Below the pieces are notes generated by a model. It saw only the letters and a program-made list of their open reading frames with translations. It did not search any database and had not been told where the DNA came from. Below, piece after piece: positions 8,851-33,649 of a DNA stretch of 64,000 bases. Every line of letters starts with the position of its first letter. Position 1 is the first letter of the stretch. Both the position numbers and the translations under genes were made by a program. This DNA is from Paracyclopina nana. Its lineage: Eukaryota; Arthropoda; Copepoda; Cyclopoida; Cyclopettidae. The stretch lies in assembly GCA_019096065.1 (NCBI GenBank), contig JAGUCH010000008.1, forward strand, positions 6,639,001 through 6,703,000. Reading direction: 5' to 3'.

Positions 8851-9558
8851 TGATGGACGACAAGTTCATCATGGCGTTATGATATGGAAATGGGATGACA
8901 GAAACAGAAGGAAGAAGAAGATGACTATTCAACGCAAAAATATCAACCATAACCTCGCAACCTCCTGTTGAATTGCATCAGAAATATGGGAAGGAAGATG
9001 AAGCTACCTGGTGAAGGGAGGTTAGCCTTGGGAGGACAAGGCAGGATTGCGAGGAGAAGGGGAGTTCTTCAGGGGACTTCAGAGAAGCAACATGTCAACC
9101 TTATAGCTAGAGGTTGACTGGTGTGAACTCTGCCAGCAGCTGGAACCTGAAGATCCTCGCTAAGTTTGATGTGTGCAGCACTGAAGAGACAGCCGCAGAG
9201 AAGAAACTTTATTGTCATATACATTGTTTTGAGCTCTGATTAGAAGCAGCTGTTATGTTGTGTTGTGCCAGCTAATGAATAGAAAATACCATCAGACCTT
9301 AATGAAGTATATTAGTGCTCAACTCATAGCGAGGTCCTGATCCCTGGAATGATCAGGGTGAAAGGGCGAGCCTTAACCACTGGTCAACTGTACATAAGCG
9401 TGCCGAGAGGTTCCTTGCCAGAAGCTGTGTACGTGAGGCTGCGGCCTCTGCATAGCGGCTTGTGAGACCTGGCAGCTCCGGTGTTGCGAATGAGTACTGG
9501 ACTTGGGACCGATGCTTAACCTTCCTAGGTTCCTGAAGAGAGTACAAATTGTACACCA
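8851..9558 (+). repeat. 5' LTR of E1 (708 bp)
   Basis: Starts TGATGGACGACAAG and ends TTGTACACCA. By eye it matches the 3' LTR everywhere except one position (A at about 9546, G at about 33637). The E2/E3 LTRs start with the related TGATGGGCAATAAG and also end in ACACCA, showing common ancestry. Confidence 0.95.
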
Positions 9559-9561
9559 TTT

Positions 9562-9579
9562 TGGAGGCCCCGGAGGGAT
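9562..9579 (+). other. Primer binding site of E1
   Basis: TGGAGGCCCCGGAGGGAT after a TTT spacer following the LTR end, identical to the E2 site. It is complementary to a tRNA 3' end of the form ...GGGGCCTCCA, probably tRNA-Thr (from memory of vertebrate tRNAs, not checked). Confidence 0.8.
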
Positions 9580-10848
9580 CGAATGGCCACTCTCTCTCTA
9601 GTGGTTTGAAGACCAAAAAGAAGTCCTGGAAAAAGATGGATGGATGCGTCCTGAAGTTACCCATTTGTGGCTGTGAATTGCCGAGGGCGAGGCTGCAATG
9701 GTTAGGCGGCACTTTAGTTGCGACTGGGGTGTGTCAATACTGTAAAAGTCCTGAGGCTGACGAGCCAAGAAGGCCATCCCGGTGGAAGTGTCTATGTGTA
9801 GTCTAGCGGTAAATGCAATGAAAAAGGCACACGTACATTTCGCATCGTTGCCACATTTAGAGGTTGTGCCTAAAAGAGACTATATCTATTAATGGACAGC
9901 CCTAGTTTGTGATGAAAATTCCATGGACCCTAGCCAGACAAATTTCCTACGTTGTGTGGCCTGGAACTATCATTTCCTAAGGGAGAAGGCCCGTGGGGAC
10001 GTCCTTGCTTGGCTTAAGCTGGAAAATGGGAGCCAAGCAGCCGGAAATGGTAGCTGGGTGGTGGCATGCGTGTCATTGCCTCTGTGGGCTTTAATGGGTC
10101 AATGGAGCTCAAGATGGGAGCCATTTTGGAAAGTTGAACCCGTTAGAAGCTGAAGCAGATGGAAGAACAAAAACCTGGAGCGCGTAGGGCGTGCATGGAG
10201 CTTGAGGTGGAAGCCACCTTGGAAAGTGTATGGTGCTCTGGACCAGGGCTCTTCTAGGGCGCAAAGAATGCGCGCCTGGGCGAGCTTCGTATACCTGTGT
10301 GTGTGTGTACCTCTTTCTCTTTCCATTCACTTTGTTGAGCTTGCTCAGCTTAGTGGCGTTCAAAATTGGTAAAAGTGAATGCAACCCTTGTTTTTCAGCT
10401 TGTGGGCACTTAGGATTCTGTTGGACATCTGGTGCCTAGGTTTGGTAATATCTCTTCTGAGCAAGTGCTCATCTTTATTCCTGTGTGTGTGTGTGTGTAT
10501 ATTTGTGTGCGTGTGGGTCTTTGGTGAAGACTACTTAGGTAAAAGTGGTCCTAATCATTGAAATAAAAACTTGTCATAGTAATTGCAACTTTTTCTCCGA
10601 GTCACTTGACCGGCGTAAGTAGGAAGCTAACTGTGCTTTGAACAGTATTACGATTAAAAGCTTTAGCTTTTAATTGAGTGCGATTAGAGGCCTAGTGCTT
10701 TTAAGTCGTGCGACGTAGCCCTGTACGAAAAGTTAGCATTTGTGTTAACTTAGTACAAAAACCTAGTTGAGTCTTAGAGATTAACTTCTCTGACGAAACT
10801 AAAGGACAAGTTGAGTTAAAGAGAACCTCTCTTTAGCGAAACGGAAGG
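9580..10848 (+). other. Leader of E1
   Basis: 1.27 kb with no convincing gene. It holds GT-dinucleotide runs (about 10299-10312 and 10482-10500), a strong candidate splice donor (GGC|GTAAGT, intron start 10615), an AATAAA near 10561 and a hairpin at 10651-10672. The donor region is homologous to the E2 leader near 7540, but the E2 copy lacks the GTAAGT. A leader donor would allow spliced subgenomic RNAs for downstream genes. Confidence 0.6.
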
Positions 10849-13335
10849 ATGTCTCGTGATTTGAAAAATGCACTTTTAGTGCAATTGGAAGTCACTGAGA
10901 ATGCTTTGGGAAAACTGCTGAAACCTTGCACTCCTACTGGGGAAAGCAGGGAGGCAGTGAAGGACTTCTTATCATGGGTTAAGTACCCGTCGACTACTGG
11001 TGCCTTGAATGTCAATAGGGCAGGGGTAATAAGAGCTTGGAATGCTCTGGAAATCATTGTCTTAAGCACTGAGGAGCCCCGTTCTCTTGATTTGCATATT
11101 ATGAAAATCATAGAACAAATGCCTCAAGATGATCCCGTTGGACAGATTCTGGTGGTGGTCAGGTATGTCAATGCAATTGACCCTCCTGATCGCAATTCAG
11201 CTACGTGTGCTTTGCTCCTCTATTGTTTTGGTATGGAGTATTTGAATAAAGCATTCAGGGAGAAAAAGACGATCATTCTTAGCAGATCTACTGATGCTGA
11301 GGAAGGGGAGACTGCTAGTTCCACTGAGGAATTGGAGCCAATAATAATAGCCTTGAGCACGATGATTAATAAAGAGAAACTTACTAACCCAGCAGCAGGC
11401 TTAGATGCTGTTGCTGCTTTGTTTGGATTAAGGCCTGACTTCTTCTTAGAACCTGATGAGGAAGAAGGACTCGTGGTCTCCACCTCGTTTACTGTGGAGG
11501 ATCCACCAAAGGATGCCAATAAAAACAAGTCACTGGACCTGTCGGCCATCCCCAAGAAAGTTGGGTTCCAAGACGGTCAAAAATCAATTCTTACGTCCAC
11601 TAAAATGACTTTGAAGGACTTGACTGTCCTAAATAATTCGGTGGTTCTGCCCCCTGGTAAGGTGGTAGAAACCACAGTGATGAAATTGTTGAAAGGAAAG
11701 ACCTTGAGTCCATATGACTTGGGAGTGGTGCGAGCCCATTACACTGCGTTGCATGATGCGAGCACTGCTAATAAAATAATAGCTACTGCCCAAATGACTG
11801 CAAAGCACATGTTTGGGGCTGACCCGAATGATATTTACGAACGAAACCTTGAACGGATCTTGAAATTAGCTGATGCTGCGTCCAAGGATTCATTAGTACC
11901 AGTGGCTGAGTCGGTCTACCATGAAGATGCCCCACTGGATGAAAGGATTGAAGCTATCAATATTAATGAAATAGTAGATGTTGAATCTGCTAGGCGAGTT
12001 GTGTTGCAAATGGTGGATCCGGATTTGTCACCTGGAAAAAAGGTCATTGAGATGCAAAAACTATTTCAGGCCTTGCAGACCAGACCTGAGTTCACCCCAT
12101 TGCAGCGCAAAATCTTTGTGGAATGTCACTTAAAAAGCCCTGAGGTGAGCTATGCGGTTCCCTCGTACTCCGAACATTCGAAAAGTGTGTATGATCCTAA
12201 ATACAATAAGGATTATATACCTTTGCCCCCTAATGGGCATCTGAAATTTGCCAATACTAGTGCCCTCAAAGAGATCAGAGCAAAGTACTCTAAGAGGTTC
12301 GATATGCAAAGTTCTTCTAATACTGCTGATAGTGTGTTAGAATTCTTGCGCACAGTAAGTACACTGGCCCGCCGGTATGATTGGAGCCATGATGCTATAA
12401 TTGAAGGTTTATGCGAAGGGGCTACTGCAAGCACAGCTGAGTACTTCAGAGGTGTGGCAAGTGAAGGCGTAGAGATCCTTTGGAATGACATCTATGCTTA
12501 CACCAAGAATGTCCAGGAGGTAGATGAGTTTATAAGAATACATAACATCATCAGGAATCCCACCCAGACTTTTGACCAATCCGTTAGGGAATTGTATAAA
12601 CTCAGGTTGCGAATCCATAGAGACTCTATGGATGGAGATGGCAAAGCACATGCCATTTCTGAGACGATCACTGATGCACATGCCCTACTGAAAAGGCATT
12701 GGCCTCAACAATACCAAGGGTATATCAATATATACCATGAGCATCTGTTGAAGCAAGGCACGCCCCTGAGGAGCATGGCTGCTCTATCGGAGATGGTCAA
12801 GGTAATTGGGGGCCATGTGGGGACTCACATACCGAAATCTGAGCGAGACAGAGGGGCTAGAGATGCTAGACTACCCATGGCCCCAGCTGTTAAACACAAA
12901 GCTCATCTTGCTATGGTTGAAGTTGATGAGGACAATTTGGATAGTGCTAGCGTGCTATCAGTGATGTCACATGTTAGCTCAAAGAGTGCCAAAATAATAA
13001 GTGCTCTGCATGGTGAGTTGGCTAGAAAGAATACAGAATTGGAACGCCAAACTGCTGAAGTAGCGGCGTTAAAAGCCGAGACTGAGGCTGAGCGATCTAA
13101 AAGAATTGCAGCTACCTTTAATATTGACATTAGTAAGCTGCCGGCGGGAAACCCATTTGAAACAGGTGGATGCCTGTTCTGCAATGGGACCCACTATGCC
13201 AAAAGTTGCGAGAACTATCCAGGTGTTTCACTGGATGAGTTAAAAAAGGATGGCACTGTGTGTATATCTTGTAAAGGATTACACAAGGTCATAAATGGAT
13301 TACCGTGCTGGAAGTCGCGACAAGCACGAAGGTAA
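10849..13335 (+). CDS. gag: Gag polyprotein of E1
   Basis: 828 residues, intact, ATG in context aaggATGt. N-terminal and capsid-like regions align throughout with E2 Gag. A heptad-rich segment lies at about 715-755. The C-terminus has a CX2CX3HX4C knuckle (CLFCNGTHYAKSC, about 775-787) and a second finger starting CISCKGLH with a final Cys before the end. It is expected to form the particle and bind genomic RNA. The -1 frame behind an A-rich run at 13242 meets a stop at 13272, so a frameshift there cannot reach pol; pol begins instead on the overlapping TAATG. Confidence 0.9.
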   Translation: MSRDLKNALLVQLEVTENALGKLLKPCTPTGESREAVKDFLSWVKYPSTTGALNVNRAGVIRAWNALEIIVLSTEEPRSLDLHIMKIIEQMPQDDPVGQILVVVRYVNAIDPPDRNSATCALLLYCFGMEYLNKAFREKKTIILSRSTDAEEGETASSTEELEPIIIALSTMINKEKLTNPAAGLDAVAALFGLRPDFFLEPDEEEGLVVSTSFTVEDPPKDANKNKSLDLSAIPKKVGFQDGQKSILTSTKMTLKDLTVLNNSVVLPPGKVVETTVMKLLKGKTLSPYDLGVVRAHYTALHDASTANKIIATAQMTAKHMFGADPNDIYERNLERILKLADAASKDSLVPVAESVYHEDAPLDERIEAININEIVDVESARRVVLQMVDPDLSPGKKVIEMQKLFQALQTRPEFTPLQRKIFVECHLKSPEVSYAVPSYSEHSKSVYDPKYNKDYIPLPPNGHLKFANTSALKEIRAKYSKRFDMQSSSNTADSVLEFLRTVSTLARRYDWSHDAIIEGLCEGATASTAEYFRGVASEGVEILWNDIYAYTKNVQEVDEFIRIHNIIRNPTQTFDQSVRELYKLRLRIHRDSMDGDGKAHAISETITDAHALLKRHWPQQYQGYINIYHEHLLKQGTPLRSMAALSEMVKVIGGHVGTHIPKSERDRGARDARLPMAPAVKHKAHLAMVEVDEDNLDSASVLSVMSHVSSKSAKIISALHGELARKNTELERQTAEVAALKAETEAERSKRIAATFNIDISKLPAGNPFETGGCLFCNGTHYAKSCENYPGVSLDELKKDGTVCISCKGLHKVINGLPCWKSRQARR

Positions 13336-13337
13336 TG
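13333..13337 (+). promoter_or_regulatory. UAAUG stop-start overlap between gag and pol
   Basis: The gag stop TAA (13333-13335) and pol ATG (13335-13337) share one base. The same TAATG is present in E2 (4802-4798) although surrounding codons differ. The arrangement is known for coupled termination-reinitiation (for example influenza B segment 7 and SART1-type LINEs). It implies that Pol is made as a separate protein, not a Gag-Pol fusion. Confidence 0.75.
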
Positions 13338-16300
13338 TCTGAAATGGAAGAAGAACCTAAAATAGACACTACACATGATGAATGTTATGTTCTGCCCTCA
13401 TTTATGCGTGGAGAATGTAACAAAGAAGTAGGGAGAGTGTATTTTGATCATCTAAAAGCACTCTCAGAAAAGAGAAAACAGTGCGCAAAGAGGCCTGATG
13501 AAAAAACCTCAAGTGCCATTGTTTTGGCCATATCTGGTTCTCAGTACATAAATGAGACTAAAGGTGGGTTAACCCCGCCTAGGATGTGGAAAGGAATATT
13601 ATTATGGACAATTATTATGCTAGCTTTGGTGCTGTGGCTAAGAAATTATGACCAAGTCGTGCCTGTAGCGATAGTATACATTATAATAATGGTATGCTTG
13701 TGTATGTGCTGGCTTTTTGCAGACACATCCCACAAGTATGATGTACCTGTACATGTGGCGAAGCTAAATGCTGGCTGCATTGAATCTCCGGATGAAAAAG
13801 TACAGCCAGAAGGGATTGTTAAAGATGATGACACGCTAAGTGTATTTTCTTTAAAACTACACAATGTGTGTGAAAGGTACTACATACCTGTCCAAGTTAC
13901 TGGCCAGATAAGACTTCATGCCTTATTTGACAGTGGAGCAATGGTTCAAATCATATCTCGCACGCTAGTAAGGTTAATTGAAGAAAAATTGGGTTACTCA
14001 TTACCGCGAGTTCAAACCAATTATCTTATTAAGAATTTCAATGGGGAAGAATTTCCCAGCACTGAAGGCGTGGTTCTGCAAGTCGCCTTTAACAATAGAG
14101 TATTGATTAGACAAGCAGTGTTCTTAGTCTCTGACTGTGAGACCCTGCTTATGATTGGGAATTCGTTATTAGTAGATAATAACATACGCTTGACTAGTAG
14201 GGATGGAAGTCATTTTATTGATTTCCCAGGGCGAATAAAATATAAAAAAATTCCCCTAGTCCTTACTAAGGAAGCATTTTACCCTGTAGCTATAAATGAA
14301 AGTATCACTGTGCTACCTGGAAGGGAAGTGACAGTTAATGCTAGCTTTCCGCATGAGATACCTTTGGTAGCTGAGCCCAGTCTTGGTGATTCAGACGCCG
14401 AAGTGGACTATGATGAAGTTAAAGTAAAGCCAGAAAGTAAAAGCGTTTACTCTAGCTTTCATGATAAGTGTTTGGAATTTAGTCCGGATGAGGATTATAC
14501 CAGCGCTACTGCTGAAGGATGTGTTACTTCTGTGACCCGGAAGGGCACTTTTCCAGTACAGATAGGTAATAATTCCGATGAGCCCATTTACATTGAGGCT
14601 CATTCTATCATAGGAAAGGCTAATATTGTTAAGAAACAACGCTATAAGCCTACCCAAATTGTGCATAAGTTAAACCTCAGTTTAAAGTCTTTGAAACATA
14701 TAGTGGACACTTGCTATTGTGAGTTTATTGACACGCATATATTGGTGCAATTTGTTGATATAAATGGATTAGCTTTCACTGACATGCACACCTTTAATGA
14801 ACAAGTTCACATAAAGGGTAATGTTAAACAAAAGCTAACCAGACATTGGAACCATGTTTTCATTGCCTCTAACCAATCTGATGGTTTTGAGGAAATCACT
14901 GATGACCTATTGATAGAGTTTGTCAGTAAATGGAACTGGAATAGCCTACCATGGGTAGTTGTTGTCCCTAGTGATAAATTATTGTCTGGGGAACAAAAGC
15001 GGATTATATTAAAGCTCAACTCTATAGTTGAAAAACTAAGTGTAGTTTGGGTAAAATACAAAAACGTTCATGATAAATGTAGGACTATAGCTCTCACTCC
15101 TATAGAGGATTACCTGGCTGGTATGGAGAGAGTGGTGCTAACTATCATGGTTCATAGTTATGATTGCTTTCCTGTTGCTTACCAAAGAAATGGAAATGAT
15201 AAATACTATGAATACACTATCTTGGGTGCTCCTACCTTTATGTATAAGATAGCAAATGATATAGAACTAATGGTTCATGTGCCTTGCTCCAAATCAAAGG
15301 ATGTTGGCTACATGGCTACCTTAGTTTACAATATATTTGGCCATTTACGTTACAAATGTGTGGCTGATAATATATGGGTGAGAACCTTAATGGATGGTGA
15401 TGTGTCAGTAGAAGAACCGGTGTGTTTAGCAGTGTCTTCTGCATTGTTATTACTATCGGGCTTGCCTATGTATCCACATGAATCTACATTTGAGGATATA
15501 AAGACGAAGTTTGGTGGTTTTATACCTTTTGAGTTTAAGCCAGATAATTGTGCTTGTGCCCTTTGTCTAGCTAAGCGTGCTGGGTCTAAGATAGTGTGTA
15601 AAAGTTACACTACTATATATGAAGGCCCTATAGCTGATCTCTGTGTCAGGCAAACGGTAATTAAAAACCCATCTGAATTGGACTTAGTGTCCGCCTCTTT
15701 AGAAATAACGCAAGACGAGGCAAAGAATCAGAGGCTGTATGAAGAGGTTTATAACCTTTTATTGCAGTTCCCTAGCGAATTTGACCCACATCGAGTTCTA
15801 AATGGAGTAGCTGGCTACACCTTCCCATTGGAACTTGACACCGTCTTAAAGTTTGACCTGGACCACATACCAGTGGAAGTCAGAGAAGACTACAGGAATA
15901 TATTGATAGAATATAAGGACATCTTCTCTGATGATCCGAGATCTTTTAGGTTATGGAATGTGGACCCCGTAAAATTTCAATTGAAGGACAATAAACCCCT
16001 GGTACCGAAGGTGTTTAACATGTCTGAATATGAAACCACTCAAGTGGATAGAAAGATATCATTGATGTTATCTTCTGGTCTAATTGAGATAGTAGATAAG
16101 TCTTTGAATAGGTACTCTGCATGTCCTTGCTTCTTAACATCAAGGCCAAACGATGAAAAGTTACCTATGAAACAACGTAAACCTAGGTTATTAGTGGACC
16201 TGACGTCCTTTAATAAGAACCTAATTTTCACGCCATCTGAACATATTGTTCCACCCATTCCTACATTATTAGGGATGCTTTCGAACTCATGTTTGATGTC

Positions 16301-17190
16301 ATCTTTTGATGTCACCTCAGGATATGACAATTTACCTGTCGATTCTGACAGTGCAGATATGTGCTGCCTGGCTGTGACGTCACCACGGTCTAGGTATAGA
16401 GGCCTTTATTTGAAAAGTAAGGCTATATTGCAGGGTACGGCCTTGGCTGTGAGAGAATTTTCATCTTTATTAATTCAGGCAATTAATCCTGAAATATTAC
16501 CTTTCACTTGTGTCTATGTAGACGATTTATTGGTCTCTTGCAAGAATCCGGACAAACCGAAGCCGGCAACTCTAGACGATTATAAGAGGCATTTAGGTGA
16601 TCTCAGGAAACTGTTTGACAGTTTAAGGGAACTAAATGCATTATTACAAATCAAAAAGACTCAATTAGGGGTCAAGGAAGCTACAGTCCTTGGACACCTC
16701 ATAAAAATTGATGAGCATGGAGTTATGACGATGCAGATGCCTGATAAATACAGGACTGCATTTGATGACTTCCCGATGCCTTCAACAAAGAAGCAATTAC
16801 AAAAGTTCATTGGTATGACCAACTGGTTAAGCCAATACTGTCCTAACATGGCCACTTACACGGCACCTCTATTGGATGTAATGGCAACTAAGCAAGGGAA
16901 AACAGGGAAGTTTAACTTCTCTCCTTTTCAAGAAAAATGCTTTTACAAGGTTATAGAGGAAATAAAGACAGGCATGTCCTTGACCTTGCCTAACTTCAAG
17001 GAAGCGTATTTAGTAGTAGACTCGGGTGTAATAAGTACCTCAGCTCTACTCATGGAAATTGATGCCAATGGGAAGGCTGTGTGTGTTGGGGCTCACAGTG
17101 CTAGATTCCCACTGTCAGTGTGCTTGTCTTACCACTCGTTTCAGCGAGAAGCATTAGGTGTATTAATGATGATACACCACTATAAAAGTA
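13335..17190 (+). CDS. pol: Pol of E1, 5' part (PR-RT-start of RNase H), interrupted by a MITE
   Basis: Starting at the ATG of TAATG: conserved LPSFMRGECNKEVGR block (about 20-34), two membrane segments (about 86-102 and 108-128), aspartic protease DSGA (199-202), a region of roughly 500 residues shared with E2 and more distantly E4, then Ty3-like RT with YVDD at about residue 1061 and the start of RNase H (VDSG, REALG). The frame runs into the MITE and stops at 17198. Removing the MITE and one TA copy restores the frame into the 3' part. An upstream in-frame ATG at 13305 lies inside gag and is less likely, because only the TAATG ATG is conserved in E2. Confidence 0.9.
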
Positions 17191-17292
17191 CCGATTGAGT
17201 CATGAGAAACGGTATGCGCTGGCTGCACTGTCGCACTAAATAAACCGGCCGAATTGGCCATAGCGCTTACCCGGTTTTGATGACTCAATCGG
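17191..17292. mobile_element. 102-bp MITE, copy 1, in E1 RNase H
   Basis: Terminal inverted repeats CCGATTGAGTCAT/ATGACTCAATCGG, TA duplicated at 17189-17190 and 17293-17294, an almost complete imperfect palindrome. A second copy of the same length lies in opposite orientation at 43558-43659, differing at about 4 positions. The TA target and small size fit a Tc1/mariner-type non-autonomous element. It separates the RNase H REALG block from the TDCLS block. Confidence 0.93.
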
Positions 17293-17294
17293 TA

Positions 17295-19462
17295 TACTCT
17301 TTGCGTATGAGCGGTTAGTGATAGTAACTGATTGTCTATCCATTGCCAGTATACTGGCTAGCTCATTCACTGGTAAAGATGCTTTTACGCACAGACTTGC
17401 AGCTAGAATATATTCTTTGCCTGTGGCATGGAAGATACGAGCTGTGCCAAGAACTGAGATTGAAATTGTTGATATATTATTGAATAAGTATCATCAAACT
17501 GAGGGAAATACAGTGTTCTTTGCACCATATTCCATACAATCGCAAATTACTAAGGACATTTATGCTGGTGTTTACCCACTTCCGGAGGAAATTTCCTCTA
17601 AAGTAATAACCACGCAGGAACTTTTGACACATGTATTTGACACTTTGGTTAATTCAGGTACTATGTCAAAGTCTTTGCTACAAAAAAGGTTACAATGTCT
17701 GAATGATAAGTGGGTTGAACTAATAGGTTCCTCGCTGCCTTTTGTTCATGATGACACTTCTACCATTCTCCATGCGCGTCATAAGGATGATGATGAGGTT
17801 GACAGATTAACTGAGGTTTCGCATTCATTTGAAGGTGAAGCTAACCCTGAATCTCCCGTCTTTGACATAGAAAACAATGTTATTGTTGACGCAATTACTG
17901 TTAAGCGTAAAATATCGGTACATTTACCAGGAATTACACGCAACCTTCTCATACGTTTGCAACAAAACTGTGAGGAAACACAAAAACTAGTGAACATGTT
18001 AGTTCTCACTCCTGAACACGAGGAACCTACCAGTATTGCGGCTAGATACCGTGTCATTGATTGTGCACTACTTGTTATTAGAAAGAATGTAAAATTACCT
18101 TTTACGAAGGCCACTAACACTAAAGTGTATATGAGCATGCAAAATTGTGTGTACTTGATGGCCTGTATTCACCTCTTACATAACCATTTAGGAAGTAAGA
18201 AGGTGAATACCTTGTTTACGCAGTCTATGTTTTCAACTTATTCTGCTAGAATAAGTAGAATAATAGTTGGTGCATGCATGCACTGTGCACTGTATAGACA
18301 AGCAAATACAAGGTTTGTGGGTAAGGGCAGATTCCGCATTCCGGATAAGCCCTTTGACCTTGTTATGATTGACCTTGCTTACTTTGATCAAACATTAGTC
18401 AAAGGAAAAGATGCCAAAGTATGCCTAGTCATTATTGATGTTTATTCAAAGATGATAATAGCTAAACCTTTGTTAAATTCCACTTACAGGGAAGTAGCTA
18501 ATGCTATGGAAGAAGTAACTTCCTTATTTGGTGTGCCTAAAACCTTATTGGCTGATAATGGAGCGCAGCTTACTAGTAATCATGCCCTCCAGCGCTTGAT
18601 TGACAAGTATAAAATACAGGAATTGTGCCAATACAGAACACTGTCCCCAAACAAACATTCAAATGCTTATGCTGAAAACAGTGTCCGTGTTCTGAGGAAT
18701 GCTTTGATACTGAACTCCAAGTCATATAAGCGGCCTATGAGTGAAGTTTTTAAACTGTCTGTATATGCTATAAATAACCGCCCGCTAACTTATTTATCAT
18801 ATACTGACCCTAATGGAGTTAAAGTAATACCTACTCCGTTCTCTCTATTCTTTGACAAAATGCCAGGTTACCACCTTGGACGTGATGTCTTTGAAATATT
18901 GAGTGAAAGTGAGGACATCATACATAAAGCTGAATGGCAGGATGTCATGAGGAAGTATGATGAGGAAGAGCAAAGACGTTTTGAACTAATGAAAGCCACT
19001 GAAAGGCCTTCGTTTAAACCTGAAATTGGTTCATTAGTCTTAGTTATTAAACATCCTGTAAATAAGCATGGGTACAAATTCATGCAGGATCTATTTGAGG
19101 TGATTGATGTGGGGTCCCACTCCACTGTGACAGTAAAACCTTATTTGCATGACGGACTAACTCATGAAGTCAGTCTGGACCATGAAAAACTATACCGTTT
19201 TCATGAGTTATATAAGTTCTTACCTGAAAAGATAACTCATTTGCTTATGCGGCCTTACACCCCTGATGAGATGCTACAACGTCTCTCCAGGAATGAAATG
19301 CTTAAATTCTTAGAGGAGGATGAGCCTGAAGTAAATGAGTATGCATTACGAAATCGAGTGTCACAAAGTATTGCCGCTCGAGATGAAGCGAAAAGCGAAT
19401 GGGCTTCAAATTTAACAGAAGAGCTTATTACTGCTACTTCTTCGTTAGGAACTTTACTATAA
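17295..19462 (+). CDS. pol: Pol of E1, 3' part (RNase H end, integrase)
   Basis: Continues the Pol frame after the MITE: VTDCLS of RNase H, a linker, the integrase zinc-region cysteines (CMHC), then the DDE core with MIDLAYFD, LADNGAQ and YAENSVR, and a basic C-terminal domain. It stops at 19460-19462 with acidic ORF3 open in the -1 frame. The sequence of the core is of Ty3/retrovirus type. E2 lacks this part in the window because of the insertion at 292. Confidence 0.88.
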
Positions 19463-22702: not shown

Positions 22703-22747
22703 TTTATTTAAAAAATTATTATTATTTTATTAGTACTGAGCAAAAGG

Positions 22748-25141: not shown

Positions 25142-25569
25142 CTAGATGGTGCCGCTAGCCAAAGGAGTGGCTGGAACGGACAGTAAAGTTCGCAATATAC
25201 AGAAGGTGTAGCAAAGGAACTATTTCCATTTGCTTCATCGACAAAATATGACCTAGAGGGATCATGAATGCGCACATGCTTTGTGGATAAGAACTACGTA
25301 GCACGCTATAACTTGAGAAGTGTGCAAACGAGGAGCTTATCGCCACATTGTACGTAAAGAAAATGTGCATCAATAAAGGCATTTAACTTTGTGACTCTTT
25401 TTGTGCTTGGGGTTCTGCCCCCTACAAGCCAAATGAGACGCTGCCGTAATAGTGGCCATAAGCTGAGTAGTTGCCTCTCCACCTCAGGTTAGACTCATAA
25501 ATGAGCTCTTGGCAAATGGCGCTAATTACACGAAGGCAGTTAATTTTTGTGGGGCTCAAAAGCGAGCCC
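25142..25569 (+). ncRNA. Structured RNA module M3
   Basis: Degenerate CTCF-like core CTAGATGGTGC (one mismatch, 25142-25152); hairpin 1 263 bp later (25405-25428, GCTTG...GGGG/CCCC...CAAGC with loop TTCTG); an Sm-consensus run AATTTTTGTGG (from 25542); hairpin 2 GGGCTC/GAGCCC (25552-25569). Of the four modules it has the best Sm-like site. Confidence 0.45.
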
Positions 25570-25747
25570 TATCATTAAAATGTAAAATATGAGGGCATTG
25601 ACTTGGAAAGGTTCTGAGAATGCTGATGTGAAAAAGAGCTCATGATAATAACTGATGCCGCTTATGCGCCAATGAGGATGCAAATATCTTCTTAGCATTC
25701 AGTCTAAGAACGAAACGTTGTGAATATAAATTATCCCTGTGTTAGTG

Positions 25748-26199
25748 CTAGGGGGCGCCACGGGTGGTAATCGTGAATCATAAATTTCACTAGTAACACC
25801 ATGCCACTATAGCGTAGAGGCATAAAAGCCAAGGAGCAGTACATTAATGTGGACCTATTATTAATGTGCTTTGGGGACCTTGTCGAAGCCTTGAAAGGCG
25901 TCGAGACTAATGTGTACTGTTTCTTTTACCAAAAGAGAAAATAAGACTGATGAAAAGATGGTACCTTGGTGCGTGCTAAACAGACCATCTTTTTGTTCAC
26001 TTTTTGTTCCTAGTCTCAGTTTGGGTTTTGCCCCTTTCTTGAGCTAAGGTGCGTAAGGCATCTGGGATCAGAAGAATAAAGCAATGCTCCAGGGGCTAGT
26101 CCCTTGGTTTATGGGCTTGAACTTTCTTCTTTTCTCTGCTTATGACACCTGATTTCGGATCCCTCCACGCACCCGTATTTTTGTTGGGCGTTAGCGCCC
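25748..26199 (+). ncRNA. Structured RNA module M4
   Basis: CTCF-like core CTAGGGGGCGC (25748-25758); hairpin 1 267 bp later (26015-26042, CTCA...GGG/CCC...TTGAG); ATTTTTGTTGGG; hairpin 2 GGGCG/CGCCC (26186-26199), followed by TTAATAAAAC. The lead-in ACCATCTTTTTGTTC...TTTTTGTTCCT before hairpin 1 matches M1. Confidence 0.45.
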
Positions 26200-26815
26200 C
26201 TTAATAAAACTAATATGGAAGAAAACAATGCTGCATTGTACAGAATATTATGTGCGAGCGCTGAATCGTGTACGAGAAGGTTATTGTTATTACCTGCTCA
26301 CGTGAGGTGACGAGATATGATCTTAACCTCAGATATATAGCTATGGTTTTCTACCTGCTGAGCTGCTTATGATGTGCGTGTTGGAGAAATTGTAAGCGTA
26401 GCTTTTCGCTGAGATGCGTGAAAAAGTGCGAATTAGCTATATACGAACATGAGAATATTGTAGTCGGCAAGGCTCAAGTTATGCCATGCTAACGTAAATA
26501 TGATATGATAAGATGAGGCAGGCAAAGCAATTCGGCACTTGAAGAAGCCGTAGTTTTTGCTGAGGCCCAGACAATGAATGGATGAGTCAGCGAAGTGATA
26601 AGTTGCTCAGCTCAGAAAACGCGAAATGATTTGCGAAAACTCAGATATCAAAAGTAAGGTGGAACTGGCTTTATTGCCTGAAAGGAGGCGAGGCCGGGCC
26701 CGGCGGAAGGGTGGGCCGGGGGTGCGCCCTGTCGCCCCTCCTCGAAACCAGACAGTTCTGCAAAAATAAAAGACAGTGTCAAGGGTGATTTCATTAATCC
26801 TGATATGGACACTTA
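26200..26815. other. Spacer between RNA modules and GC-rich exons
   Basis: No gene is supported. The composition switches at about 26690 from AT-rich to strongly GC-rich sequence that continues to about 27245, unlike anything else in E1. Confidence 0.5.
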
Positions 26816-27261
26816 CTATACCACGCCCTCGAGGGGGTCCTCGGTCTCGGGGATCCCGAGGAGGCCGAGGACCCAGCGGGTCACCCGGGGGAGCTCCTCT
26901 GGCTCGGCCCAGACTCGGCTGACGAGCCGGTACAGCCCCCGGGGCTTGGCCCGGTTGACCCAGACCAAGCCCGGGAGCACCACCCCATAATAGGTGGCCG
27001 CCGCTGCCACGTTTATGGCGATGCCCTAGAGAATCTCTTCGGCCTGCAATGTAAAGGAAGATCGCTAATGGAATCTAATCTGTTACGAAAAGAACTTACA
27101 ACACCATCCCCCTGGCAGGTCTGGCCTTGAAGGCCCGCTAGCTGGCCTGCGGGCTCCTGGGGCAGCAGGACCGCGGACTCGGCCGCGGCCTGCCCCCCTT
27201 CGACGGGAAAGTGGGCGGGGGCAGCCGTTGCTGCTGCTGCTGCTGTTGATTGTTCTTGAGA
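26816..27261 (-). pseudogene. Two GC-rich exons of an unidentified spliced gene
   Basis: Minus strand. Exon a spans 27261-27100: acceptor ttttatgttttacag before 27261, donor GTAAGT from 27099, 54 codons, Ala/Gln/Pro-rich with a CAG-type alanine run. Exon b starts at 27043 after ttacattgcag and in the same phase meets TAG at 27028-27026, then stays open to TAG at 26816-26818. The post-TAG frame has very high G/C at third codon positions, so it looks truly coding (about 70 residues including YYGVVLPGLVWVN). Either the TAG is a mutation or read through, or another acceptor (CTCTAG at 27026) is used. All phases equal those of the upstream membrane-protein gene, so these could be alternative 3' exons of it. 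Confidence 0.4.
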
Positions 27262-27741
27262 CTGTAAAACATAAAATGTTGTTTTACGAATAAGATTGCA
27301 CTGGAATTTGAAGATTTCTGTTTGCACTTACGAAAAAACCGTCCAAAAATGGGGCCATCTTGGAAAGAATGCTAACTGTAGCGCTACCAAGTAATTTGTT
27401 ACTTATATGAGTAGGAAGTTAACTAAAAGTGCCAAAATAAATGGAATACTTGCGTTAGCCCATAAAGCAGCCCTGACTGCTATGCCGGCATTCTTGGTTG
27501 ATGTAACTATCACACTTGGCGGTATCGAACTTGTGTTATGAATATATGACTATTAGGGCATTAGTGCTTTTATTAGTTTATTGGATCTGTCAATGCTTAT
27601 GTAAATAAAAACAATAACATAGTGCTAAAACAGACCGCATAAAATGAAGAATTTCCACCCGGAAAGTTGAACTTGACGAGTGGGATGACTAAGTGTAAGA
27701 CTATTGGGCCCCGCGAGGTCTGATGAGGTCGCCATGGATCA
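27262..27741 (-). terminator. 3' flank and poly(A) signals of the antisense membrane-protein gene
   Basis: On the minus strand two AATAAA signals lie at 27582-27577 and 27573-27568, about 160 nt after the stop codon at 27744-27742. Nothing else is recognised in this stretch. Confidence 0.6.
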
Positions 27742-28750
27742 CTAATTGGTGGGCTCTGCAATAGTGCTTGACAATGCGTGGGTGGCCTCGCTTGGAAGTT
27801 CTTGGATCACTGCCCCAGTGGTCCTCGGGACATTGACGTAGAACTGGCTCCGGTTGCGGCGCCTTTTGTTCCTTCTCCGCTTAGAGCGTTGGCTTTCATC
27901 TGGTTGCCCCTGTAAAAAAGGCACATGATGAGGATCCAAGGTACACCAAACGCATGGAGTAGACATCTTCATTGAGCTTTGATCCCATTAAGGAAACGAA
28001 CGATTACTTACTTGTCCCAGTGGCCGCAGCACATCATAGATGGGCTCGTTCAATGATGGGCGTGAAAAGGTGGTGACATGGTAAGGGGGCGTGCCTCCAC
28101 GTACCAAGATCATGTTATCAAAATTGGACAATGGCACTGAAGGCAACGGTCTCCTACTCATAGTATCGTAAATTTCCGGGAAGGAGGGGTTTGCCAATGG
28201 CAAGGCCAGAGGCTCCAGCTCAACCTGGTCAATGACCTCTGCGTTCTCAACGCAGGCTCGGCATAGACAGCACCGCTTGCACCTCTTGTACAGGCGGTAC
28301 ATGAAGCATGTGACCATGATTAGGAGAAGCTGCAATGGCGAGGAAAAGCATTAATGTCTAGCCTTGCTTAAATTCAATGGTCATAATTGGACTCACCAAA
28401 ATGATCACTAGGGCCGCTACCAGGCCAACCCAATCCTGAACACTGTACCGATCGAATTCGAAGAAACTTCGGGATGACGGTACAGAGGGGTCGACCTCCG
28501 CAGTATCCTTTGGAGCGGACTCCATAGAGGTTGCAACCTCGGGGAGAGGACTAGTAGAGGCCGTGGTAACCCTAGTTGGGGGTGCTGCAGTCGCCATTGT
28601 TGAAGTTCTTGTCCAAGACTCGGGCAAGGTCCACCTAGTGGTGGTTGCAAGGGTCTTTGCAGTGGGACGAACAGTCGTTGGCAATGTGCTAGTCATTGCT
28701 GTTGTAGTTGTAGCCGCCGTAGTGGTGGTGGGCAACTGGAGAAAACCCAT
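27742..28750 (-). CDS. Antisense spliced mucin-like membrane protein of E1 (3 exons)
   Basis: Exons 28750-28397 (donor GTGAGT), 28329-28012 (acceptor CAG, donor GTAAGT) and 27909-27742 (acceptor tttttacag), all phase 0, giving at most 279 residues. Exon 1 encodes a Thr/Ser/Pro-rich mucin-like stretch and the first half of a transmembrane helix; exon 2 completes the helix, then a Cys/Lys-rich juxtamembrane segment (CKRCCLCRAC) and a tail with two YxxPhi motifs (YDTM, YDVL). Exon 3 adds a very basic patch (KRRRNKRRR). There is no signal peptide, an in-frame stop lies just upstream of the ATG, and a good acceptor (ttttctccag) ends at 28736, so the true 5' exon is probably elsewhere on the right. 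No known family recognised. A host-cell signalling or surface role is inference. Confidence 0.65.
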
Positions 28751-29077: not shown

Positions 29078-30676
29078 ATGAGCAGGTTCCAGTCTATGAT
29101 GAACACCGCTGCCGATACCACCCTCCCCAGCCTTGCCAAACTTGGTGAAGCTTTGCCTGAAAACGAGATGGACCCGAAAAAGAACGGTGAAGTCCGAAAG
29201 GTTGACGTAGTCATGATCCCGCAACTGGAGGATCATGAACATGAGGCTCTACTTATGGAAGAGGTACCTGAGGGTGTGGCCCCTAGTACCATTGATCAGG
29301 ATGCATACCGGGCTAATGCCCAGTTTTGGGACGAAGAAAGTGCTGGATTAGACCAGATGGCGCTCTTTGCTGATACCCAAACTGGTGACGAAGCTGACGA
29401 GGCTGAGGGACCTCCCTTACTTGTGAGGGGAGGTGAGGCTTCAAGGAAGAACTCTGGTGACCAGGTTATCCACGAGAATGCAGAACATGAAGTTGCAATT
29501 GTGACTCAGGCTCTTAATGCTAGAGTTATGACTGAAAAAATGGATCAGGACGATGATGGCTCAGCACCTACTCACAATGGTGAGGTAGCCCGTGCTGACC
29601 CGAGATTGATGAGGCCTTGCATTGTTGAACTCCCCCTTGGGGATGAAGCTGTGAGGCTAAGGTATCCCGTGGCGTATCAGGACTTGATCCGCCCTCCCTT
29701 TCCGGACACTGTCAAGACGTATAACCGTCAAGCGATGGCAGTACGAGAATTGGTCCAGAGGGGCTTTAACGAGGCCATGTTAAAAGTGGCTATCAGTAAT
29801 ACTCCGTTGGTTAGCCGTGAGAGAGCCTTTGATATCACGGTACGCTGCAATGGAGAGGTTCTGGAGCAACCGGACTTCCGCCGCCCATTAAAGGTGTGTA
29901 ACTTTGAGACTTTCGAGTTACAATTGAAGCCAGTTAGCGAGGGAGGACCGCTACCAGACTTTGTGGTGGTCTTCTTGATGTTGGGGACGCTCCCGGTCTT
30001 CAATTTGCCAAAGGAGGCTGCGTTCAATGACACCTATCATCGACGCACTAATGTCAGGGATTGGGCTGCGATTCAAAGTCCCTCTGCACTCAGCTACGCA
30101 GTCTACAATGTCCAAGGAAGGAACGGTGCCAGGGTACCTGTTGTGGTATCCAAGCATCTGGCTAAACATGGTGTTGTTCAATTGAAGCCAACTCTGGATA
30201 GGTCTTTTGCCAATGCCAGGCTATTTATGGATGTGAGTTCACCTTACTTCCAATTGCACGTTGGAACCCCATCTTGCCTTATGCATGAGGTTGCTCAAGC
30301 CCCACGAAGAATCGATATCAAAGTCGACATGACTGCCATGCTACCTCGCGAGGTAGGCAGGTTTGTGGAAAGAGTAGAGCGCTCTAACCCCCAAGCGATG
30401 CGTTTCATCTCTGGGGCCCGCTCACTGAAGGTAGCCGAAATACAGGATCGGCCACAGAAAAACCGTCGAGGTACCCGCACTTACTTGGAGGCGGCGACCA
30501 ATCAATCTGCTGGGGCCATGTCTATAAAACAAGGAGCTCCAAAAGCGAAACGTACCAAGGGCGACAAGGAAAAGGCTCGATTGGGCCAATTAATTGTAGC
30601 CAAGATGGAGACGCTATCATCAACTGACTTGAAGTCCTTTGGAGCGGCGATAAATGAGTTTGTTGACCAATTCTAA
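29078..30676 (+). CDS. Accessory ORF A, unknown function, paired with the glycoprotein
   Basis: About 532 residues from ATG 29078. The first 150 or so residues are acidic and probably disordered. The remainder looks like a globular core, then a lysine-rich segment (KAKRTKGDKEKAR) and a short helix ending INEFVDQF. A diverged 3' half of the same gene is present in E3 (34348-34731) with the same ending (INGFVGQF), directly before the same type of glycoprotein gene, so the pair is inherited as a unit. It has its own TATA box and AATAAA (30820-30825). A matrix or nucleocapsid role is suggested only by size, charge pattern and the glycoprotein neighbour. I do not recognise the family. Confidence 0.75.
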   Translation: MSRFQSMMNTAADTTLPSLAKLGEALPENEMDPKKNGEVRKVDVVMIPQLEDHEHEALLMEEVPEGVAPSTIDQDAYRANAQFWDEESAGLDQMALFADTQTGDEADEAEGPPLLVRGGEASRKNSGDQVIHENAEHEVAIVTQALNARVMTEKMDQDDDGSAPTHNGEVARADPRLMRPCIVELPLGDEAVRLRYPVAYQDLIRPPFPDTVKTYNRQAMAVRELVQRGFNEAMLKVAISNTPLVSRERAFDITVRCNGEVLEQPDFRRPLKVCNFETFELQLKPVSEGGPLPDFVVVFLMLGTLPVFNLPKEAAFNDTYHRRTNVRDWAAIQSPSALSYAVYNVQGRNGARVPVVVSKHLAKHGVVQLKPTLDRSFANARLFMDVSSPYFQLHVGTPSCLMHEVAQAPRRIDIKVDMTAMLPREVGRFVERVERSNPQAMRFISGARSLKVAEIQDRPQKNRRGTRTYLEAATNQSAGAMSIKQGAPKAKRTKGDKEKARLGQLIVAKMETLSSTDLKSFGAAINEFVDQF

Positions 30677-30916: not shown

Positions 30917-30943
30917 TTTTACTTGACATTCGCTGAGTTAATA

Positions 30944-32827
30944 ATGTTGGTACTTGTGCTTTTGACTTTGTCCTTGCCCATAATCAACAGCCGGGCTGCA
31001 TCTAACGCACTATTAGATGGACCGGTATGTCACAAAGGGCATGCCTTGGTCCCTGTGCGCGTGGTTTATCATCCTAAGCCTGATAAAAAGGCTATGATCA
31101 TTGACACTGGTAATTTCCGCCAGCTCCTTGAAAAGACCCTTGACTCGGTGAATGTGCTCGAGGATGGTGTGGGACGATTAACAGAGGAGGTTCCTACAAC
31201 TCAGACTCCCACTGATGTAGTGACCTACCAAGATAGAGAATATGTGGGTGTTAAGGCTCCGCCAACGAAATTGGATGAGGAGTGTAAAACACTAGGACTT
31301 GATTTTAACTCGTTTATTCCGGAAAACCAAGTTGACATGGACAGAACATTAGAACTTTTGACTCAAGCAGCAGATTCTAATACTGCGACTACCTTCACGT
31401 TTTGCTTGAAGTTTCGTTTCATTGGGAACTCTCCAGTTTCACTGGATGGACATGTTCCTTTTGATAGAATTCCATGGAAAGAAGTTCCTAAAGCTTCCAT
31501 CAAACCTGGATTCCCATGCATAACAGGGAAGTTTGCTGATAAAAAACTAGTAGAGGCCACGTCACATCTTTTTGACGGCACAAGCCCGGTGGGAACTATT
31601 TGTGTACGGCATAAATACGCCATTAATCATAAGGGCCAGATAAGCCATAAATTGTCCAAGGCCAAAAGTATGGTCAACCATGCTTTGACCGCTCTTAAAA
31701 ACCTTGCTGAAGCTGGTCGCACTACAAAATTTACTGAAGGAATGATGAAGAAAGTCAAACTTCTGGTCATTCCGGATAATATTAGTTTAGCAGTACACAT
31801 GCTACGAAAGGTTAGTGACGCATTTGTAAAACTTGGCTACTTGCCCGGGGATTACAAGGAAGTGCTAGCGATGGTGGAACAAATAGTTACCTTTGCTAGA
31901 AACATTAGGCAGGTTGACAAGCGATTCAGTCTGCCCCGAGTTAACATAGCTAGCGATTTGGAGAACCAAGCTGTGACAAATAGTGTGTATGATCCACTAA
32001 CTAATACTGAAGTGGTGGGCGATAGTGTATCTCAGGGAATGATGAGTTTCCACAGTCTGGATCCTGAACCTGAAGTGACATTTAAAGTAGTGTCTAGAAG
32101 TGTTCATGGACAAGTGTTAGCGGACACATTCTTAACAAAATATAAAGATATGGCTTATGTCACTAAGGATCTACCTATTTATGGAGATTGCTATATGCAT
32201 GATGCCAATGTCACTGTGTGTGGTAATAAGCATGTTACAATGCCATACGGAGCCCAACAGTGTGCCAAGTTATTATTGGGCTTAGCTTTGGGTGACCCTT
32301 TTTCCGAGTGTAACATGGTCCCACTGACTGATAATACATTGGAAGAAGTGGCTTGCCAGGAGTACAGAGGGTTCCTGAATGTCATCAAGGACACCTCTAT
32401 AAACAGGACTTGCTTAAATGACTTTAAGAATTCCATAGCTTTAGTGCCTGGCTCGTACCAAGTGCTAAGCCAATGCCTGGTCACGATGGGAAGTTATAGT
32501 ACTGGGTATGAAGACTCCCCATGGGAAAGTGACATTTTGAAGTTCTTTACAAAGTTTCCAGAGGAAGAGCCACTGGGTTTGTTTGACCATTGGAAAATCA
32601 TACTAATTATAAGCACACTTTCAGGCTTCATTATAATTTTGTTAGTCTGCATCCTAGTGTGGAAACGTCGGGCACTAATCCGCAGATGCTGTGGAGAGCC
32701 TGATTATGTTGAACCAAGAACTGGGCGTCGGCGGATAAATGCCAGGCGCCTTGATAATGGAAAGGACCCCATGGAAATGGGACTGATGGGTGGAAAAAAC
32801 AAGCTTGGAGCTGCTACGTTAGTATAA
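30944..32827 (+). CDS. Envelope-like glycoprotein G1 of E1
   Basis: 627 residues from the ATG 30944; an upstream TTG extension is not needed. Signal peptide of about 20 residues; ectodomain of about 550 residues with conserved CHKGHALVPVRVVYHP near its start, several cysteines, N-glycosylation sites (NVTVC, NRTC) and a membrane-proximal YEDSPWESD block; one transmembrane helix (about 565-590); a basic tail ending ATLV, a class I PDZ-ligand type end. I see no furin site. The paralogue G2 in E3 shares this layout at roughly 45% identity by eye. It probably mediates cell attachment or fusion as a retroelement Env, by position next to the 3' LTR. Sequence family not recognised. Confidence 0.8.
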   Translation: MLVLVLLTLSLPIINSRAASNALLDGPVCHKGHALVPVRVVYHPKPDKKAMIIDTGNFRQLLEKTLDSVNVLEDGVGRLTEEVPTTQTPTDVVTYQDREYVGVKAPPTKLDEECKTLGLDFNSFIPENQVDMDRTLELLTQAADSNTATTFTFCLKFRFIGNSPVSLDGHVPFDRIPWKEVPKASIKPGFPCITGKFADKKLVEATSHLFDGTSPVGTICVRHKYAINHKGQISHKLSKAKSMVNHALTALKNLAEAGRTTKFTEGMMKKVKLLVIPDNISLAVHMLRKVSDAFVKLGYLPGDYKEVLAMVEQIVTFARNIRQVDKRFSLPRVNIASDLENQAVTNSVYDPLTNTEVVGDSVSQGMMSFHSLDPEPEVTFKVVSRSVHGQVLADTFLTKYKDMAYVTKDLPIYGDCYMHDANVTVCGNKHVTMPYGAQQCAKLLLGLALGDPFSECNMVPLTDNTLEEVACQEYRGFLNVIKDTSINRTCLNDFKNSIALVPGSYQVLSQCLVTMGSYSTGYEDSPWESDILKFFTKFPEEEPLGLFDHWKIILIISTLSGFIIILLVCILVWKRRALIRRCCGEPDYVEPRTGRRRINARRLDNGKDPMEMGLMGGKNKLGAATLV

Positions 32828-32930
32828 AGCTAAAGTTTTGTTGTATCACTTATCATTTACTATTGAGCAATCTAGTCACCTTTTTTCATATTTTAGTTCA
32901 TAAAATGATGACAAAAGCTGAAAAAGTTTG

Positions 32931-32941
32931 GGCCGGGGTAA
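32931..32941 (+). other. Polypurine-like tract of E1
   Basis: Purine-rich GGCCGGGGTAA directly before the 3' LTR. E3 has AGGGCTGGGGAA in the same place, both preceded by AAAAGCTGAAAAAGTT. Expected primer for plus-strand DNA synthesis. Confidence 0.6.
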
Positions 32942-33649
32942 TGATGGACGACAAGTTCATCATGGCGTTATGATATGGAAATGGGATGACAGAAACAGAA
33001 GGAAGAAGAAGATGACTATTCAACGCAAAAATATCAACCATAACCTCGCAACCTCCTGTTGAATTGCATCAGAAATATGGGAAGGAAGATGAAGCTACCT
33101 GGTGAAGGGAGGTTAGCCTTGGGAGGACAAGGCAGGATTGCGAGGAGAAGGGGAGTTCTTCAGGGGACTTCAGAGAAGCAACATGTCAACCTTATAGCTA
33201 GAGGTTGACTGGTGTGAACTCTGCCAGCAGCTGGAACCTGAAGATCCTCGCTAAGTTTGATGTGTGCAGCACTGAAGAGACAGCCGCAGAGAAGAAACTT
33301 TATTGTCATATACATTGTTTTGAGCTCTGATTAGAAGCAGCTGTTATGTTGTGTTGTGCCAGCTAATGAATAGAAAATACCATCAGACCTTAATGAAGTA
33401 TATTAGTGCTCAACTCATAGCGAGGTCCTGATCCCTGGAATGATCAGGGTGAAAGGGCGAGCCTTAACCACTGGTCAACTGTACATAAGCGTGCCGAGAG
33501 GTTCCTTGCCAGAAGCTGTGTACGTGAGGCTGCGGCCTCTGCATAGCGGCTTGTGAGACCTGGCAGCTCCGGTGTTGCGAATGAGTACTGGACTTGGGAC
33601 CGATGCTTAACCTTCCTAGGTTCCTGAAGAGAGTACGAATTGTACACCA
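32942..33649 (+). repeat. 3' LTR of E1 (708 bp)
   Basis: Same length as the 5' LTR with one difference seen. It is followed at once by the GACT duplication and E2 LTR sequence. Confidence 0.95.

What the first reader, a model, noticed from the sequence alone, without database searches (positions are those of the whole stretch)
8851..33649. A 24.8-kb, very young retroelement carrying a virus-like accessory gene set
Two 708-bp LTRs with one mismatch and a perfect 4-bp duplication enclose gag, pol, ORF3, 6 kb of structured non-coding DNA, an antisense spliced membrane gene, an unknown ORF and a glycoprotein. This size and gene content far exceed ordinary Ty3/gypsy or simple retroviral genomes.
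Basis: partly seen in the sequence, partly recalled or inferred. Interest (0 to 1): 0.9.

Follow-up and report, generated by a model that had tools for sequence, protein, structure and literature searches.

The report
Giant retrovirus-like element with reverse-strand gene
A roughly 25,000-base retrovirus-like element, present in several young copies in a compact, probably animal, genome, carries, besides the usual genes, an envelope-like gene and a conserved spliced membrane-protein gene on the opposite strand, which makes it an unusually complex retroelement.

Summary
E1 (8851-33649) has 708-bp LTRs with one mismatch and a GACT target duplication. A second family, B (mostly about 23.2 kb), has the same 3' gene set at 57 loci.

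Corrections: 'ORF3' is the C-terminal part of a 2513-residue Pol frame in four other copies. E1's pol is broken; so is pol in most A copies and env in about half. The 'structured' spacer folds no better than pol.

The remarkable part is the antisense gene: three exons, introns at the same places in A and B, next to ORF6 in 56 of 57 B loci (the exception is cut off), mostly constrained in B. ORF6 and env are constrained too. A protein search gave no relative of env. Giant env-bearing Ty3-like elements are known; this gene set is a new variant.

The parts
8851..9558 (+). 5' LTR, 708 bp, TG...CA
32942..33649 (+). 3' LTR, 1 mismatch to the 5' LTR
8847..8850 (.). target site duplication GACT (second copy 33650-33653); 4-bp duplications also at three other copies (TTAT, ACTA, TAAT)
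9561..9580 (+). primer binding site candidate just behind the 5' LTR, shared by A and B families (tRNA not identified)
   Evidence: read from sequence
10849..13335 (+). gag, 828 aa, two CX2CX3H...C knuckles near its end; no Pfam match
13335..17198 (+). pol part 1: two hydrophobic segments (residues 84-129), aspartic protease (weak match), RT with YVDD, start of RNase H; its ATG overlaps the gag stop (TAATG)
17188..17294 (.). ~105-bp inverted-repeat (MITE-like) insertion with TA duplication that interrupts pol; absent in the 10 other copies readable there; second copy at 43555-43663
17264..19462 (+). pol part 2: rest of RNase H, integrase (rve)
19387..20919 (+).
20920..27741 (.). spacer without long frames; 23000-25000 is 88-96% identical to E1 in the other 11 A copies, only short islands match in the diverged copies
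28397..28750 (-). antisense gene exon 1: S/T-rich (39% of the first 100 residues), start of the membrane span; donor GTGAGT
28012..28329 (-). antisense gene exon 2: end of the membrane span, tail with YDTM and YDVL; donor GTAAGT
27742..27909 (-). antisense gene exon 3: basic stretch, stop; AATAAA downstream (only a sub-cut-off Pfam match, Ourmia_CP, E 0.0025)
29078..30676 (+). ORF6, 532 aa from its first ATG, no relative found in PDB, Pfam or NCBIfam; in all 15 LTR pairs (uninterrupted in 13); dN/dS 0.07-0.10 in five A pairs
30944..32827 (+). env-like membrane protein, 627 aa: hydrophobic N-terminus, C-terminal membrane span, C-terminal ATLV in A and B; dN/dS 0.07-0.17 in five A pairs
33650..34347 (-). 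first part of the 5' LTR of B-family copy B#1 (the rest is 8618-8850); E1 lies inside it
223..7370 (-). gag and pol of B#1 (pol 67% identical in amino acids to E1's over 1278 residues)
34340..37886 (+). 3' part of a second B copy: end of ORF6, env-like frame 34943-36856, 3' LTR 36960-37886

Best explanation
E1 is one copy of a recently active lineage of giant (mostly 23-25 kb) retrovirus-like Ty3/gypsy-type elements. Shown from sequence: LTRs, target duplications, gag, a long Pol, ORF6, a membrane protein in the env position, and a three-exon membrane-protein gene on the opposite strand, in the same order in two families; ORF6, env and (in B) the antisense gene show purifying selection; gag and pol were not tested. 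Inferred: the element replicates by reverse transcription of a full-length sense RNA. Pol is made apart from Gag by stop-restart at the overlapping TAATG and may be membrane-anchored by its two N-terminal hydrophobic segments. ORF6 and env are made from spliced sense RNAs and serve enveloped, cell-to-cell spread. The antisense gene has its own promoter near 28.8-29.1 kb; its introns survive retrotransposition because the sense genomic RNA cannot be spliced at them. Its S/T-rich outer part, single span and tyrosine-bearing tail suggest a receptor- or decoy-like surface protein that manages host cells. E1 itself is no longer autonomous, because its pol is broken; other copies with complete frames exist.
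For: LTR pairs: letters compared in 4 of 15 pairs, 0/0/0/1 mismatch, each with a 4-bp duplication. 15 of 15 pairs collinear, with the antisense exon always on the other strand. Family B: antisense exon 0.9-1.4 kb upstream of ORF6 in 56 of 57 loci, the exception being the copy cut off in this window. Intron positions and phase (0, 0) shared by A and B although the products are only 24% identical over 181 residues. GT-AG at both introns in 8 of 8 B loci read, of 56. dN/dS: ORF6 0.07-0.10 in 6 computed pairs, env 0.07-0.17 in 7, antisense gene 0.07-0.44 in 20 of 21 B pairs. Best solved relative of RT is Ty3 (E 5.7e-21; retroviral chains 1.2e-10 or weaker). Recombinant copies: a10 and a9 are 99-100% identical across 29.2-31.0 kb but 55-74% across the antisense gene, where a10 is 97-99% identical to E1. 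TAATG in A and B. Frames of 2513 residues for Pol in four A copies.
Against: No transcript, protein or particle data. Env and ORF6 have no detectable relative, so 'env' rests on position, hydrophobic ends and constraint; only 3-4 glycosylation motifs and no R-X-K/R-R site. Many copies are damaged in spite of near-identical LTRs: the 2513-residue Pol frame is listed for only 4 of 12 A copies and stops were confirmed in 6 of 6 others looked at; env is split or holds stops in 7 of 15 pairs. dN/dS for ORF6 and env was computed on the best-scoring copies, which favours intact ones. The antisense gene's upstream exons, promoter and signal peptide were not found, and in A its constraint is weakly measured (one pair, 14 changes, dN/dS 0.60; five further A loci were not measured because the script's splice pattern missed them). 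The RT tree does not place the lineage (11 of 14 inner branches unsupported, no retroviral outgroup). Integrase has only a very weak PDB match (E 0.76).
Confidence: 0.72

Rival explanations
1. The 20.9-32.8 kb block is a separate mobile unit or host segment that inserted once into an ordinary gag-pol element and was then copied along.
For: The ORF6-env pair occurs in two families with different LTRs, and most of the spacer is not matched in the diverged copies.
Against: 15 of 15 LTR pairs have it at the same place. In B the same genes lie at the same place before the 3' LTR, the pol of A and B diverged alongside, and no copy of the antisense exon away from ORF6 was found. No insertion junctions were seen, but none were systematically sought.
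Confidence: 0.05
2. The antisense gene is a chance set of open frames with splice-like sites, or a one-time captured host gene without function.
For: No Pfam match above cut-off for any exon; dN/dS 0.60 in the one A pair measured; low-complexity outer part.
Against: Same three-exon plan, intron phases and motifs in A and B at 24% identity; present in 15 of 15 A-type pairs and 56 of 57 B loci; 6 of 8 B loci without a stop in the compared part, dN/dS 0.07-0.44 in 20 of 21 B pairs.
Confidence: 0.08
3. The elements are purely intracellular retrotransposons; 'env' and the antisense protein serve inside the cell or control the host, with no infectious stage. Many copies move in trans.
For: No similarity of env to any known fusion protein; no furin-type site; many copies with near-identical LTRs have broken pol or env.
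Against: Constraint on env within both families and 44% identity between them and the membrane-protein plan. The recombinants fit either reading.
Confidence: 0.25

Closest known systems
Burro giant gypsy-like elements of planarians (read: passages of PMC6431247)
   Same: Gypsy-like, up to 25 kb between LTRs, animal host, env-like part, extra genes
   Different: In Burro env lies in frame between gag and pol in a huge polyprotein with apoptosis and ubiquitin domains; here env is a separate 3' gene, Pol starts at its own ATG, no such domains in Pfam, and an antisense gene is present
Retand and Ogre plant Ty3 elements (read: passages of PMC11963269, and of PMC6431247)
   Same: Long internal region; in Retand conserved antisense frames between pol and the 3' LTR
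   Different: Retand's antisense frames mostly encode TRP28 proteins and no env was seen there; Ogre's size is largely long LTRs (1.9-6.5 kb) against 0.7-0.9 kb here; introns in the antisense frames are not mentioned in the passages seen
Env-bearing LTR elements of bdelloid rotifers, TelKA/Vesta (read: passages of PMC5408684)
   Same: Young copies, extra ORFs shared between element families
   Different: In the passages seen TelKA env is paramyxovirus-F-like and its variation looks neutral; here env has no relative and is constrained
Antisense genes of complex retroviruses such as HBZ of HTLV-1 (named in passages of PMC11963269; its splicing is recalled)
   Same: Opposite-strand gene in a gag-pol-env genome
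   Different: HBZ is a nuclear protein; here the predicted product is a single-span membrane protein with two introns
Insect errantiviruses / gypsy ERVs (recalled; search listing only)
   Same: Ty3-type pol with env
   Different: Known ones are about a third of this size and have a recognisable F-like env (recalled)

Membership tests
LTR retroelements (retrovirus/Metaviridae type) | direct LTRs TG...CA with short target duplication | tested here: met
   four pairs with 4-bp duplications
LTR retroelements (retrovirus/Metaviridae type) | primer binding site matching a tRNA 3' end | tested here: inconclusive
   TGG-starting site behind the LTR shared by A and B; host tRNAs were not searched
Ty3/gypsy (Metaviridae) | gene order PR-RT-RH-IN | tested here: met
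   Pfam: weak protease, RVT_1, weak RT_RNaseH_2, rve in E1; Peptidase_A2B (Ty3, weak), RVT_1 and RNase H in B#1
Ty3/gypsy (Metaviridae) | RT falls in the Ty3 clade of a tree | tested here: inconclusive
   Ty3 is the best PDB match but the tree of 17 rows has no support for the placement and no retroviral outgroup
Burro | env in frame between gag and pol, apoptosis/ubiquitin domains | tested here: not met
   env is a separate 3' frame; no such Pfam domain in the frames scanned
Retand | antisense TRP28 (PF04195) frame | tested here: not met
   All three E1 antisense exons scanned against Pfam without a TRP28 match; product is a membrane protein
Errantivirus | F-like env | tested here: not met
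   no Pfam, PDB sequence or protein relative; a fold comparison was not possible, so a very distant F-like fold is not excluded
Retroviridae | RT closest to retroviruses | tested here: inconclusive
   retroviral chains score 1.2e-10 or weaker against 5.7e-21 for Ty3; no tree with retroviruses was made

The most novel reading that the evidence does not exclude
An undescribed lineage of giant animal retrovirus-like elements with genes on both strands: Gag, a membrane-anchored Pol made by stop-restart, an envelope of unknown fold with a partner ORF6, and a fast-evolving, spliced, receptor-like membrane protein from an internal antisense promoter that is exchanged between copies by recombination.
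Probability: 0.45. Interest if true: 0.78.

Novelty: new variant of a known kind. Interest (0 to 1): 0.62.

Why it matters
It shows that a Ty3-like element in a 92-Mb, probably animal, genome can keep a 23-25 kb, two-strand, intron-bearing gene set over the divergence of two families. It makes testable how giant retroelements express and package such genomes, how introns persist in a reverse-transcribed element, and whether retroelements use antisense membrane proteins against hosts or rivals. If Pol really is membrane-anchored and made apart from Gag, it is another solution to a step that most retroviruses solve by Gag-Pol fusion (recalled).

Tried and rejected
Rejected: a TIR transposon around E1. 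The 700-bp inverted repeats (33648-34347 / 36960-37659) first looked like one (note); searches show that they are LTRs of two B copies in opposite orientation.

Rejected: the pol interruption as an intron. The inserted piece has terminal inverted repeats and a TA duplication and is absent in 10 of 10 other copies with readable sequence there (an eleventh fetched piece, L055, gave no match).

Rejected: 'structured' spacer as special; only weak repeats there. No Rfam family reached its gathering score in the window and no tRNA was found in it.

Doubted and checked: whether the shorter Pol frames listed for plus-strand A copies are an artefact. In six of six such copies stops lie where the listing puts the frame's start, so they are real in the assembly. 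The four copies with the 2513-residue frame are all on the minus strand of their contigs; I have no explanation.

Led nowhere: relatives of env (8000 candidates scored, none at E 0.01 or better), env and pol in viral contigs, PDB relatives of ORF6 and the Pol C-terminus, NCBIfam (weak transposase matches to the integrase and one weak match of the Pol C-terminus), Pfam for antisense exons. Papers: searches; no listing showed this gene set.

Full report
What is there. Window positions 8851-9558 and 32942-33649 are 708-bp direct repeats with one mismatch, starting TG and ending CA, flanked by GACT on both outer sides. The window is part of a 92-Mb genome in 10 contigs. It has several HSP90-family genes, one ending in KDEL, so the host is a eukaryote; that it is an animal is my inference from the GRP94 sequence and the env-bearing elements, not a result.

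Copies. The LTR finds 47 stretches. From them I formed 15 LTR pairs by hand: 12 close (95-100% identical to E1's LTR) and 3 diverged. Left unpaired: C4:266412, C9:709404, C7:4864036, C7:2549145, C6:6517191 and pieces at C7:5701322-5701815, C9:898259-898970 and C9:906767-907360. Laid against the hits, all 15 pairs hold leader, Pol C-terminus, spacer match, antisense exon (on the other strand), ORF6 and env in the same order. Thirteen spans are 23.4-24.8 kb; two are 37.2 and 34.1 kb, with the extra length between leader and Pol C-terminus. In the three diverged copies the spacer match is only a ~180-bp island. Letters were compared in 4 LTR pairs: 0, 0, 0 and 1 mismatches, with 4-bp duplications GACT, TTAT, ACTA, TAAT. 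In 11 of 15 pairs both LTRs have equal bit scores in all their pieces, as expected of identical LTRs. So the family was recently active, and the block 20.9-32.8 kb is part of it.

Damage. Not all copies are whole. ORF6 is in one uninterrupted row in 13 of the 15 pairs; it is split in a3 and holds a stop in a11. Env is in one row without stops in 8 of 15 (E1, a3, a5, a7-a11); it is split or holds stops in a2, a4, a6, a12 and the three diverged copies. The Pol C-terminus lies in a 2513-residue frame in a2, a4, a9 and a11, a 2231-residue frame in a7 (with damage behind it), and frames of 945-1559 residues in a3, a5, a6, a8, a10 and a12; stops were confirmed in these six. Whether this is real damage or assembly error was not tested.

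Family B. ORF6 and env have a second set of homologues, mostly at 44-50% and 43-53% identity. They belong to another LTR element with 927-bp LTRs. Of 13 LTR pairs formed, from 39 of the 41 rows, nine span 23.1-23.4 kb, one 22.3 kb and three 29-36 kb. One search scored only 40 of 127 candidates, 80 of 107 and 70 of 120, so counts are lower bounds. In the window, B#1 lies on the minus strand (gag 7370-4800, pol from 4806 down to 223, 5' LTR at 34347-33650 plus 8850-8618), E1 sits inside that LTR, and B#1 abuts the 3' part of a plus-strand B copy (34340-37886).

Pol. Since the frame holding the '19387-20919' protein is 2513 residues long in four A copies and 2646-2669 in about a dozen B loci (my count), Pol has a C-terminal extension of about 490 residues and there is no separate ORF3. 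E1's pol is interrupted by the ~105-bp inverted-repeat insertion at 17188-17294, absent in 10 of 10 other copies with readable sequence, and shows a frame change before 19462. The pol ATG overlaps the gag stop as TAATG in A and in B, which suggests termination-reinitiation; the frame relation would also allow frameshifting, and neither was tested. Both families have two hydrophobic segments near the Pol N-terminus: residues 84-102 and 111-129 in A, 68-86 and 99-117, weaker, in B. The weak protease match lies at about residues 185-280 and the RT match starts at about 920, leaving some 600 residues with no known domain.

Antisense gene. On the minus strand E1 reads 28750-28397, 28329-28012, 27909-27742 as three exons with GTGAGT..TTGCAG and GTAAGT..TTACAG introns of 67 and 102 nt, both phase 0, giving 279 residues. 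Family B has 369 and 336 nt exons plus a third, with introns of 67-69 and 68 nt, also phase 0. The two products are 24% identical over 181 residues (pairwise BLAST of two sequences without composition correction, E 4e-9); the first intron splits the membrane span in both and the second follows an IYDV motif in both. In L018-L022 the script's acceptor pattern failed; one search shows a TAG acceptor there for the plus-strand ones. Of 8 B loci read, all 8 have GT-AG at both introns and 6 are free of stops in the compared part (the third exon was cut short by the compared stretch). In one search the exon merges to 56 loci, each next to ORF6 on the other strand; of 57 ORF6 loci of the B type only the truncated one in this window lacks it. 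In one search all 16 matches (E up to 1) lie just upstream of an ORF6 hit. So it is a standing gene of the lineage, with no host copy found. Introns in antisense orientation are not spliced from the sense RNA, which explains why they survive (inference). No exon has a Pfam match above cut-off.

Constraint and recombination. Nei-Gojobori dN/dS: ORF6 0.07-0.10 in 6 computed pairs (5 A, 1 B); env 0.07-0.17 in 7 (5 A, 2 B); A against B is saturated. These are chosen pairs among the best-scoring copies, not all pairs. Antisense gene in B: 0.07-0.44 in 20 of 21 pairs among seven loci, 0.61 in the other (L042-L043; L042 has a frame change); pairs with L045 are saturated. In A one pair was measured: 0.60 from 14 changes. 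The antisense gene is therefore constrained in B, and its constraint in A is open. Copies are mosaics: L023 (a10) and L024 (a9) are 99-100% identical over 29.2-31.0 kb but 55-74% over the antisense gene, where L023 is 97-99% identical to E1. Template switching between co-packaged RNAs would explain it (inference).

What it is. RT's best solved relatives are Ty3 (5.7e-21), then an 'enzymatic polyprotein' (4.5e-11; a caulimovirus by recall) and retroviral enzymes (1.2e-10 or weaker). In a tree of 17 rows A and B form one clade on a long branch with unsupported placement. So it works like an env-bearing Ty3-type retroelement; membership in a named clade was not shown. Env has a hydrophobic N-terminus in A, a C-terminal span, many conserved cysteines and a C-terminal ATLV in both families; no relatives. 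ORF6 has none in PDB, Pfam or NCBIfam; it was not searched in the large protein collection.

Novelty. Giant gypsy-like elements (Burro, Ogre), extra ORFs, and antisense ORFs in plant Retand are in print (passages read). In the paper searches made no listing showed an animal element with a spliced antisense membrane gene. The library lacks most subscription papers, so this is weak evidence. I rate it a new variant of a known kind.

Noticed in passing
44845-60775: A third LTR element: 647-bp LTRs that are identical, 5-bp duplication ACAGC, gag, pol in pieces, and on the minus strand a 603-aa membrane glycoprotein-like frame (57908-59719, sub-cut-off C-type lectin match, RKKR site) plus a 149-aa membrane frame; the glycoprotein was found at only one other place in the genome, on contig C2.
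   Followed up: partly
17188-17294 and 43555-43663: Two 96% identical copies of a ~105-bp inverted-repeat element with TA duplication, each apparently inside the pol gene of a different LTR element.
   Followed up: partly
8618-8850 and 33650-34347; L002 and L028: E1 and copy a10 (contig C4) both lie inside B-family LTRs, at different positions; among the 8 upstream and 8 downstream flanks checked only these two copies showed a B LTR. Possibly a nesting preference.
   Followed up: partly
contigs C1, C2, C3, C4, C7, C8 (A copies): The four A copies with the full 2513-residue Pol frame are all on the minus strand of their contigs, the other eight, with shorter frames, on the plus strand; unexplained, perhaps chance.
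   Followed up: partly
40314-44795: A gypsy-type pol in broken frames, next to short tandem duplications at 38305-38812 and 39797-40269.
   Followed up: no
L045 (contig C9:718000-726000): A more diverged B-like copy (antisense exon 55%, env 39% to the queries) that hints at a third family.
   Followed up: partly
10929-11528: The N-terminal part of gag varies more among the A copies compared (87-94% to E1) than its surroundings (94-100%).
   Followed up: no
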